Source: an uncultured Pelagibacteraceae bacterium
GTDB lineage: Bacteria; Pseudomonadota; Alphaproteobacteria; Pelagibacterales; Pelagibacteraceae
NCBI GenBank assembly: GCA_902603555.1
Contig: CACKVD010000001.1
Coordinates: forward strand, 43,785 to 107,784
Direction: 5' to 3'
DNA: 64,000 nucleotides
Both the position numbers and the translations under genes were made by a program. Below the pieces are notes generated by a model. That model was not told the origin of the DNA. It did not search any database and saw nothing but the letters and a program-made list of their open reading frames with translations. Within the stretch, counting starts at the first letter, position 1; each line of letters opens with the position of its first letter. Positions 59,320 to 61,931 of the stretch are shown in pieces.

Positions 59320-59574
59320 ATGAAAAAAATAACAATTTATACTGGTCCAATGTGTAATTATTGTGAAGCAGCAAAAAGATTATTAACCAGGAATAATGCA
59401 ACTTATGATGAAATTAATATTGCAACAGTAGATGGCGCAATGGATGAAATGATTAAGAAAGCTAACGGTAAAAGAACTATACCACAAATATTTTTTGATG
59501 ATCAACATATTGGTGGTTACGATGAAGTAAGAGCTTTAGAAAAAGAAAATAAACTTCAAGATCTTTTAAAATAA
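59320..59574 (+). CDS. grxC: Glutaredoxin 3
   Basis: ITIYTGPMCNYCEAAKRLLTRN; TIPQIFFDDQHIGGYDEVRAL (CxxC active site). Confidence 0.93.
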   Translation: MKKITIYTGPMCNYCEAAKRLLTRNNATYDEINIATVDGAMDEMIKKANGKRTIPQIFFDDQHIGGYDEVRALEKENKLQDLLK

Positions 59575-59907
59575 AACAAAGTAAATCACTAAAAAAATCA
59601 AACTATACTCAAAAAAACTTTTAAAGATTGTTATTTGTTTTTCATTAAATCTTTGATTTACATATTTTCTTAGAAAATAAAAACCAATATTTACTGACAA
59701 AACTCCAATTATAAGACCTATAATAGTGGATTTAATTGTAAAGTTTTTGTAACCAAAATAACAAGCAGCAATAAAAGTAAACCAAGAAACTTTTGTAATA
59801 AATATTTTAAATATTATTCCTGCCTTTTTACTGAATACTGATTGTGTTTTTATTATTGAATAAGACCAAACAATTCCAATTAAAAAACTAATATACTTGA
59901 TAATCAT
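59566..59907 (-). CDS. Hypothetical multi-TM membrane protein
   Basis: 113 aa, several hydrophobic segments; convergent 9-nt overlap with grxC. Confidence 0.5.
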   Translation of the reverse strand: MIIKYISFLIGIVWSYSIIKTQSVFSKKAGIIFKIFITKVSWFTFIAACYFGYKNFTIKSTIIGLIIGVLSVNIGFYFLRKYVNQRFNEKQITIFKSFFEYSLIFLVIYFVLF

Positions 59908-59930: not shown

Positions 59931-60620
59931 TTATTGAAGTGTAATACTTACAGTTGGTTCATTAATCCACATAGAACAAGCAGTGTCTTCAACTCCAACA
60001 GCTGTTGCAGTATTAAATTTTACTTTAATTACTGGTGCTCTTAAAGTTTTTTGATATGGGGCAGTGAGTTCATAAACCATTACCGCATTATCTCCTGAAA
60101 CACTCATTGTTTTTGCTGACTCTGGTGAAGAATAACCAATATCAATATTAGAACTTCCTTCGTCACCATCTCTTGTGCCGTCGCCGGCTCCGTAACTTCC
60201 AGCATTTACTAAATACATTGTCTCAGCAACAGCTGTTCCACTACTTTCACCAACTGTCATTTGTGTTGCAGTTGCGTTATCACCTCCATCAGTTCTACAT
60301 AAGCCACCATCAACAGAAATACTTGCTGTTATTGTAAATGTTCTACTGATAGTTACTCTTAAGTGAGTGTAAACTATTCCTGGTGGTATGCCTGTGGTAG
60401 GTGCATATGCACCAACATCAGCGCCTGCACTAACTGAGGCTATGTCAGCATCCATATCTCTCTCACCAAGAGTAAAAGTTGTTGAGCATGCTAAATCTGT
60501 ACAAAGTTCAACTTTTTTCATTGTAACTTCGTATTGCGTGGGTTGTCCTTCATCTGAAGCTGTATAACCTCTTTCAATTATAAAGAATGTAAACAATAAA
60601 ATAAAAAATATTTTTTTCAT
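59931..60620 (-). CDS. Small secreted protein of unknown function
   Basis: Signal peptide MKKIFFILLFTFFIIERGYTA; Gly/Ser/Thr/Ala-rich, several Cys; 5 nt downstream of the beta-barrel gene. Confidence 0.7.
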   Translation of the reverse strand: MKKIFFILLFTFFIIERGYTASDEGQPTQYEVTMKKVELCTDLACSTTFTLGERDMDADIASVSAGADVGAYAPTTGIPPGIVYTHLRVTISRTFTITASISVDGGLCRTDGGDNATATQMTVGESSGTAVAETMYLVNAGSYGAGDGTRDGDEGSSNIDIGYSSPESAKTMSVSGDNAVMVYELTAPYQKTLRAPVIKVKFNTATAVGVEDTACSMWINEPTVSITLQ

Positions 60621-60625
60621 ATATA

Positions 60626-61513
60626 TTATGAGTTACCATTACTTATAACTACTCCAGTACTTTCAGATTCAATAGTAATTATGTTGCTTCTTTTAACTTT
60701 TGTAAGCATTTCTTCTCTCACATCAGAGTTTTCAAAAGGTGTATTAGAAAAACCATCTCCAATTATTGGTCGATTTTTTCCACCATAAATATAAGTTATT
60801 CTTAAATAATCCATACTATCACTTATATTATTATCATCATAACCAGCTTCTAAAGTTAAATTATTTGTAAGATTTAATGTTGTTGAATAAACATCACCTT
60901 CAGAATCTGTTGATCCTCTAATGGCTTCCCACTGATAAGTTGTCAAAGAAACCTTTGCCCATGGTGCATAGGGAACCTGGCCTTCAATTTCAAAATCATA
61001 CCCATCTAAAACTCTTTCCGTACTGGACCCAACTTCGTTAGCACCACCAAGTACATCTAAATAGTAATTTCCTGTCACATTGAAATTGGATGTTCTAAAC
61101 TCAGTACCAAAACCTAATCTGCTGTTGAATTCTATATCTGCATCAAAAAAACTATTTACTCCCAGAAATGAAGACCCATCTTCAGCTAAGAATCTTTTTC
61201 CTATTCCATAGTTTATGGATTGTCTCGTGTCTCCTAAAATGTGATAGCTGTTAAGTTGAGCTTGATAAAAAGTTAAATCATTTTCATTAACTGATAACGG
61301 TCGCACAATCATAATTGTGCCAGTTGGTTTATTTTCATTCTTAGCAGAAATAGAAACTTCGGTATCTCCAGGTCCATCAAGCAAGTTTTCTAAATATCCT
61401 TCTGCTGATTTGGAGCCTTTGTCATAAACCTTATTTAAAATATTATCTAAATCATTGGCATTGACTGAAGTTGATGCTAAAAGACCGATTAATAAAAAAA
61501 TAAATTTTTTCAT
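60626..61513 (-). CDS. Inverse-autotransporter-type (intimin/invasin) beta-barrel protein without passenger (start revised from 61549)
   Basis: Signal peptide MKKFIFLLIGLLASTSVNA; IAT_beta-like succession FYQAQLNSYHILGDTRQSINYGIGKRFLAEDGSSFLGVNSFFDADIEFNSRLGFGTEFRTSNFNVTGNYYLD...DGYDFEIEGQVPYAPWAKVSLTTYQ; ends just after linker-like KVKRSNIITIES. Confidence 0.65.
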   Translation of the reverse strand: MKKFIFLLIGLLASTSVNANDLDNILNKVYDKGSKSAEGYLENLLDGPGDTEVSISAKNENKPTGTIMIVRPLSVNENDLTFYQAQLNSYHILGDTRQSINYGIGKRFLAEDGSSFLGVNSFFDADIEFNSRLGFGTEFRTSNFNVTGNYYLDVLGGANEVGSSTERVLDGYDFEIEGQVPYAPWAKVSLTTYQWEAIRGSTDSEGDVYSTTLNLTNNLTLEAGYDDNNISDSMDYLRITYIYGGKNRPIIGDGFSNTPFENSDVREEMLTKVKRSNIITIESESTGVVISNGNS

Positions 61514-61562: not shown

Positions 61563-61931
61563 TCATTTAGCTTTAAAAATCAAACAAACTCCATTATTAC
61601 AGTACCTTTTACCAGTAGGTTGTGGTCCATCTTCAAAAATGTGACCATGATGTCCACCACAATTTTTACAATGATATTCTGTTCGAGCATAACCTAGTAA
61701 ATGATCTGTTTTAGTTTCGAAAACATCAGGTAAAGATTGATAAAATGAAGGCCAACCTGATCCACTTTCATATTTGGTAGAAGAATCAAATAATCTTATT
61801 CCACAATTTGCACAATGATAACTGCCTTTACGTTTTTCATTATTTAATTCACTTGTTCCAGGAAGTTCTGTTCCATCCTCAAACAAAACTAATTTTTGTT
61901 CAGCTGTAAGATTGGGATTTTTTTTATTCAT
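61563..61931 (-). CDS. msrB: Peptide-methionine (R)-S-oxide reductase
   Basis: KGSYHCANCGIRLFDSSTKYESGSGWPSFYQ; YHCKNCGGHHGHIFEDGPQPTGKRYCNNGVCL. Confidence 0.96.
   Translation of the reverse strand: MNKKNPNLTAEQKLVLFEDGTELPGTSELNNEKRKGSYHCANCGIRLFDSSTKYESGSGWPSFYQSLPDVFETKTDHLLGYARTEYHCKNCGGHHGHIFEDGPQPTGKRYCNNGVCLIFKAK

What the first reader, a model, noticed from the sequence alone, without database searches (positions are those of the whole stretch)
59931..61513. Barrel gene plus adjacent small secreted protein: possible split inverse autotransporter
Five nt after the barrel gene comes a 229-aa secreted protein rich in Gly/Ala/Thr/Ser with Cys residues (ELCTDLACSTTF, GGLCRTDGG, DTACSMW) and beta-rich patterns. 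It could be the exported substrate or surface partner of the barrel, giving a two-partner form of type Ve secretion, which I am not aware of being described.
Basis: inference. Interest (0 to 1): 0.7.

Follow-up and report, generated by a model that had tools for sequence, protein, structure and literature searches.

The report
Passengerless outer-membrane barrel with separate partner
Ocean SAR11 bacteria and other Alphaproteobacteria carry a cut-down relative of the intimin/invasin surface-display barrel that has lost its attached cargo and is nearly always followed by a gene for a small exported protein, most likely the missing cargo made as a separate chain.

Summary
Window 61513-60626(-) encodes a 295-aa inverse-autotransporter barrel (IAT_beta, E 8e-29; closest structures intimin and invasin). 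It ends about 18 residues after the type Ve linker, so it has no passenger. Five nt downstream, 60620-59931(-) encodes a 229-aa signal-peptide protein of no known family.
Co-occurrence is essentially perfect. In 297 Pelagibacteraceae genomes all 66 IAT genes (56 genomes) have such a partner immediately downstream. In 385 alphaproteobacterial genomes all 12 partner-bearing genomes are among the 45 with IATs, and all 12 are adjacent. Barrels with a covalent passenger have no partner. In Pelagibacter the pair is swapped as one cassette at a fixed site (msrB-grx), which is empty in other strains.
Best explanation: a split inverse autotransporter, with the partner exported to, and probably held at, the cell surface. 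Export is inferred, not shown. AF2 of the read-through pair gave no confident interface.
Salmonella ZirT/ZirS is an experimentally shown IAT-plus-partner secretion pathway, SinH/SinI is a named pair, and Tsai 2010 proposed non-covalent passengers for barrel-only homologues. This is a new variant: unrelated partner family, passengerless barrel, obligate pairing.

The parts
60626..61513 (-). Passengerless inverse-autotransporter barrel (295 aa): signal peptide, short N-terminal region, 12-stranded barrel, linker with conserved V-x-R-x-N motif
   Evidence: Pfam IAT_beta 8.1e-29; profile matches intimin 4E1S 1.7e-27 and invasin 4E1T 2.6e-27 through the end of the linker; Foldseek of the homologous G093 barrel to 4E1S and 4E1T, TM 0.80 and 0.81
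60629..60682 (-). Codons of the last 18 residues (IITIESESTGVVISNGNS) after the V-x-R-x-N linker motif; maps to where the passenger begins in intimin
   Evidence: Present with 15-20 residues in the pairs examined; alignment to the end of the crystallised intimin domain; in intimin this strand is at the extracellular face (PMC13078405)
60621..60625 (-). 5-nt intergenic spacer TATAT between barrel stop and partner ATG; tight, probably translationally coupled pair
   Evidence: gaps lie between -4 and +15 nt in all but two of the 76 pairs (49 and 38 nt)
59931..60620 (-). 229-aa secreted partner: Sec signal peptide, all-beta prediction, 4 cysteines in the mature protein; proposed non-covalent passenger
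   Evidence: No Pfam, NCBIfam or PHROG family; AF2 model mean pLDDT 77, pTM 0.74, almost all strands; found only next to IAT barrels
61563..61931 (-). msrB-like gene: upstream border of the insertion site, not part of the pair
   Evidence: Conserved neighbour in most Pelagibacter pair loci; directly abuts grx in pair-negative genomes
59320..59574 (+). Glutaredoxin gene: downstream border of the insertion site (with the optional small gene 59566-59907), not part of the pair

Best explanation
A split inverse autotransporter. The first gene makes a complete type Ve barrel and pore linker but stops about 18 residues after the linker leaves the pore. The second gene makes the passenger as a separate, disulfide-bonded, beta-rich protein. 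Shown here: both proteins carry signal peptides, are encoded as an obligate adjacent pair, travel together as one cassette, and the barrel ends where intimin's passenger starts. Inferred: the partner is exported by Sec to the periplasm, crosses the outer membrane with the help of its own barrel as ZirS does with ZirT, and stays at the surface or is released. Inferred with less confidence: the conserved 15-20-residue tail, which should sit at the extracellular face, is the docking strand or secretion signal for the partner. The variable partner is probably the functional end, an adhesin or a surface determinant under selection by phage, grazers or a ligand.
For: Co-occurrence: 51 of 297 family genomes have a P0002 homologue and all are among the 56 with IAT_beta; all 66 IAT genes have a signal-peptide partner directly downstream. 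In the class sample 12 of 12 partner genomes are IAT-positive and adjacent (hypergeometric 1.5e-12, ignoring relatedness). A further case turned up in the phylum sample, and all seven named SAR11 relatives have the pair. Complementarity: passenger-bearing IATs (e.g. L137, L139) have no partner; the two passengerless barrels without a partner (L145, L155) also lack the V-x-R-x-N plus tail ending. Topology: the barrel aligns to intimin up to the extracellular beta-strand at the linker end (PMC13078405). Co-inheritance: barrel and partner distances correlate 0.925 at one site, against 0.03-0.58 with flanking genes. Precedent: ZirT is required, and with ZirS sufficient in E. coli K-12, for ZirS secretion (PMC2270342). 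Even cysteine counts fit an oxidised, extracytoplasmic protein.
Against: No experiment shows the partner outside the cell. The AF2 model of a naturally in-frame pair read through its stop gave good domains (pLDDT 79) but pTM only 0.58, so no confident interface; coordinates and PAE were not available. The partner has no detectable similarity to Ig-like passengers, SinI or any solved fold. Partial correlation of the tail with the partner is weak and confounded by physical linkage. A 12-stranded barrel plugged by its linker leaves no obvious pore for a second chain; a hybrid pore with BamA would be needed.
Confidence: 0.62

Rival explanations
1. The partner stays in the periplasm as a dedicated assembly factor, plug or periplasmic extension of the barrel, replacing the LysM or periplasmic domains that some IATs carry.
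For: It has a signal peptide, is co-translated and obligate, and no outer-membrane export signal is recognised. AF2 finds no confident interface with the surface tail.
Against: It diverges more than the barrel (mean distance 0.60 against 0.52) and can be very different next to a 91-92% identical barrel (G294 against G026), unlike a chaperone. IATs that have a passenger do not need it.
Confidence: 0.2
2. The barrel is a simple anchor or porin and the partner reaches the surface by another route, then docks on the barrel or its tail.
For: The linker probably plugs the pore once folded, as in intimin (PMC13078405).
Against: In ZirT/ZirS the IAT itself is needed for export. No other secretion gene was seen to be conserved next to the pair across its different genomic contexts, though neighbours outside the msrB-grx site were not annotated systematically.
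Confidence: 0.12
3. Two functionally unrelated envelope genes kept together by hitch-hiking in a variable island.
For: The pair does lie in a site of gene gain and loss.
Against: The pair is adjacent in the same order in unrelated genomic contexts across many alphaproteobacterial families and the partner was never seen without a barrel.
Confidence: 0.03

Closest known systems
ZirT/ZirS (ZirTSU) of Salmonella enterica (PMC2270342)
   Same: Intimin-family barrel gene followed directly by a gene for a small Sec-exported protein with no bacterial relatives elsewhere at the time; separate chains; horizontally acquired island.
   Different: ZirT is 660 aa with its own Ig-like passenger and occurs in a narrow taxon. 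The barrel here has no passenger and the partner family spans Alphaproteobacteria. Homology of the partner to ZirS itself was not tested directly.
SinH/SinI, also called IatB/EcSMS35_2660 (NCBIfam NF033423 and NF040711 partner_SinI)
   Same: IAT gene with an adjacent downstream exported autotransporter-associated protein.
   Different: SinH is 724 aa with a passenger, and SinI shares a C-terminal domain with it. No similarity of the present partner to SinI (hhalign probability 0.4%).
Barrel-only intimin/invasin homologues of Alphaproteobacteria, cyanobacteria and Chlorobi (Tsai et al. 2010, PMC3008723)
   Same: The barrel here fits this group. That paper calls the function of passengerless barrels completely unknown and proposes non-covalent passengers.
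   Different: No partner gene was named there for the alphaproteobacterial member in the passages read; its two examples of separate passengers are Yfr4 and Ahy1.
Type Vb two-partner secretion (TpsB/TpsA)
   Same: Transporter and passenger are separate genes.
   Different: TpsB is a 16-stranded barrel with POTRA domains; here a 12-stranded barrel with C-terminal linker and no POTRA domain detected.

Membership tests
Inverse autotransporter (type Ve) barrel | IAT_beta domain / intimin-type 12-stranded barrel | tested here: met
   Pfam 8.1e-29; 12 main strands and intimin/invasin as best structures
Inverse autotransporter (type Ve) barrel | Linker with conserved motif traversing the pore after the barrel | tested here: met
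   V-x-R-x-N: invariant columns V273, R275, N277; aligned to intimin linker end
Inverse autotransporter (type Ve), complete | C-terminal passenger on the same chain | tested here: not met
   Chain ends 18 residues after the linker motif; 15-20 residues across the pairs
Inverse autotransporter (type Ve), complete | Hairpin-mediated export of cargo to the surface | not testable with these tools
   Needs surface-exposure experiments
ZirTS-like IAT plus partner secretion | Adjacent downstream signal-peptide protein | tested here: met
   66 of 66 SAR11 loci and 12 of 12 partner-positive class genomes
ZirTS-like IAT plus partner secretion | Barrel-dependent secretion of the partner | not testable with these tools
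   Shown for ZirTS (PMC2270342), not here
partner_SinI family (NF040711) | Sequence similarity to SinI | tested here: not met
   No hit in 43 members; hhalign probability 0.4%
Type Vb two-partner secretion | 16-stranded POTRA-bearing TpsB transporter | tested here: not met
   Only IAT_beta (and a sub-threshold DUF) hit; 12-stranded barrel

The most novel reading that the evidence does not exclude
A distinct, widespread split type Ve system in Alphaproteobacteria: a passengerless intimin-type barrel exports and tethers a swappable partner through its conserved surface-exposed tail, by strand complementation, giving some of the ocean's most abundant bacteria a cassette-exchanged surface protein.
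Probability: 0.3. Interest if true: 0.78.

Novelty: new variant of a known kind. Interest (0 to 1): 0.62.

Why it matters
The function of passengerless intimin-family barrels was called completely unknown in 2010 (PMC3008723). This gives those of Alphaproteobacteria a specific, obligate candidate cargo and makes the question testable with two genes in E. coli K-12. It would also identify a hypervariable surface module, swapped as a cassette between otherwise near-identical genomes, in SAR11, where surface variation has been described mainly for an LPS island (PMC2217521); the ecological reading (phage or grazing pressure) is inference. Mechanistically it asks whether a type Ve barrel can move a chain that is not covalently attached, which bears on the hairpin model.

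Tried and rejected
A suspicion that the partner is DUF4382-like or Ig-like (from memory of motifs) was not supported: no significant Pfam hit among 43 members, no PDB sequence relative, and no Foldseek match with E below 0.1 in PDB or BFVD. A viral-contig scan with the partner alignment could not run because no conserved stretch was long enough. No phage record carries the partner, and the only barrel match is a 2-kb fragment deposited as an E. coli phage. A tail-partner covariation test was inconclusive because of linkage: windows before the tail score as high or higher. A read-through fusion of a naturally in-frame pair was folded as a stand-in for AlphaFold-Multimer; domains were good, no confident interface. 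The partner HMM did not match the passengers of long alphaproteobacterial IATs, so a partner-derived-from-passenger origin is unsupported. SinI was tested and rejected as a relative.

Full report
What is there. The window belongs to a Pelagibacteraceae (SAR11) genome, G000:C1. On the minus strand, 61513-60626 encodes a 295-residue protein and, five bases after its stop, 60620-59931 encodes a 229-residue protein. Both start with a Sec-type signal peptide, judged by eye. The first matches Pfam IAT_beta with E 8.1e-29; the second matches no Pfam, NCBIfam or PHROG family.

The barrel is a complete type Ve barrel without a passenger. A profile of 35 relatives matches intimin (4E1S, 1.7e-27) and invasin (4E1T, 2.6e-27) through to the last residues of the crystallised domains, where KVxRxNxI aligns with LVQRNNNI. 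The AF2 model of the close relative G093 has 12 main strands, and its best structural matches are 4E1S, 4E1T and 5G26, with TM 0.75-0.81 by target length. After this motif the window protein has only 18 more residues. In the 76 pairs examined the tail is 15-20 residues, commonly strand-(G)-strand in pattern; one row matched the motif search only at a spurious position and one has a variant motif. In intimin the beta-strand at the end of the linker lies at the extracellular face and forms a small sheet with loops 4 and 5 that is needed for hairpin formation (PMC13078405). By homology the tail should therefore be at or just outside the surface; this is inference.

Co-occurrence. P0002 was sought in 297 family genomes: 51 positive. 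IAT_beta in the same genomes: 56 positive, including all 51. Reading the DNA downstream of all 66 IAT genes shows a signal-peptide ORF of 228-380 aa starting within a few bases of the barrel stop (one gap is 49 nt), including in the five genomes where P0002 itself had found nothing. In 385 genomes drawn from the class, 45 have IATs and 12 have the partner profile; all 12 are IAT-positive and adjacent (one, G420, has a frame-disrupted barrel). The hypergeometric probability is 1.5e-12, not corrected for relatedness. One more pair came from the phylum sample, and seven named SAR11 records all have it.

Partner and covalent passenger appear mutually exclusive. Long IATs with a C-terminal extension (L137, L139, L147 and others) have no partner within the flanks held; barrels with a partner end within about 12 residues of the profile end. 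Two further short barrels with complete reading frames, L145 and L155, have no partner; their ends lack the V-x-R-x-N plus 15-residue tail. The number of such exceptions is small.

The partner. Alignment of 43 members shows 26% mean column identity, an invariant Cys40 and nearly invariant G81, Y84, C108, T110 and F202. 74 of 76 mature partners have 4, 6 or 8 cysteines, consistent with disulfides. Both genes are under purifying selection (dN/dS 0.07-0.39). The AF2 model (pLDDT 77, pTM 0.74) is nearly all beta. No structure in PDB or BFVD resembles it with confidence, so either the fold is unrepresented or the model is not good enough.

A cassette site. In most genomes of the window's genus the pair lies between msrB and grx. 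Of ten pair-negative genomes whose site was fetched, five (L174, L176, L177, L179, L180) have msrB directly against grx, and two (L178, L182) have only the small gene 59566-59907 between them. At this site 26 genomes carry pairs differing by up to 74% (barrel) and 84% (partner) while flanks are nearly identical in several comparisons. Barrel-partner distance correlation is 0.925, against 0.03-0.58 with flanking genes. In G294 and G026 the barrels are 91-92% identical while partners are about 41% identical, as expected if the partner is the selected, variable part.

How it works, and how far that is shown. The obligate pairing and export to at least the periplasm are well supported. Crossing the outer membrane via the barrel is inferred from the type Ve architecture and from ZirT/ZirS, where the IAT ZirT is required for secretion of ZirS and the two suffice in E. 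coli K-12 (PMC2270342). Tethering to the tail is a hypothesis. A naturally in-frame pair (G093, stop read as Gly) folded as one chain with a partly paired alignment gave pTM 0.58, so AF2 does not provide an interface; the tail-partner covariation test is inconclusive.

Known or new. The general idea is not new: ZirTSU, SinH/SinI (NCBIfam calls SinI an autotransporter-associated protein, model name partner_SinI) and Tsai et al. 2010, who noted that alphaproteobacterial members are barrel-only, called the function of passengerless barrels completely unknown, and suggested non-covalent passengers. A later review still gives type Vb as the only type V class with separate chains (PMC6555100). What is new here is a specific partner family, unrelated to SinI by profile comparison, strictly tied to passengerless barrels across Alphaproteobacteria and swapped as a cassette in SAR11. 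No paper in the library links inverse autotransporters to SAR11 or Pelagibacter in this way; most subscription papers are not held, so this is not proof of absence.

Noticed in passing
G494:C1 (class sample; part in L160): A 1.9-Mb single-contig alphaproteobacterial genome has five IAT_beta matches, three of them in open frames of about 12720, 10334 and 9595 codons: apparently giant inverse autotransporters.
   Followed up: no
L137, L139: Alphaproteobacterial IATs with long C-terminal extensions (977 and 1013 aa) exist, contrary to the 2010 statement that this class has barrel-only members.
   Followed up: partly
L074, L075 (G294 C6 and C2): One SAR11 genome carries five barrel-plus-partner pairs of several subtypes at two loci.
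   Followed up: partly
L085, L086 barrel C-termini: Two barrels end in CTGGGCK / CSGGGCK, a pair of cysteines in the tail, where barrels otherwise almost never have cysteine.
   Followed up: no
L175, L181 (msrB-grx site): Some pair-negative genomes have neither the pair nor msrB directly after grx; L175 has a 398-aa ORF there, so the site may be a general insertion hotspot.
   Followed up: no
L184:6136-9358 (E. coli SMS-3-5): The C-terminal ~105 residues of SinI match the C-terminus of SinH, suggesting that this partner arose from a duplicated passenger domain.
   Followed up: partly
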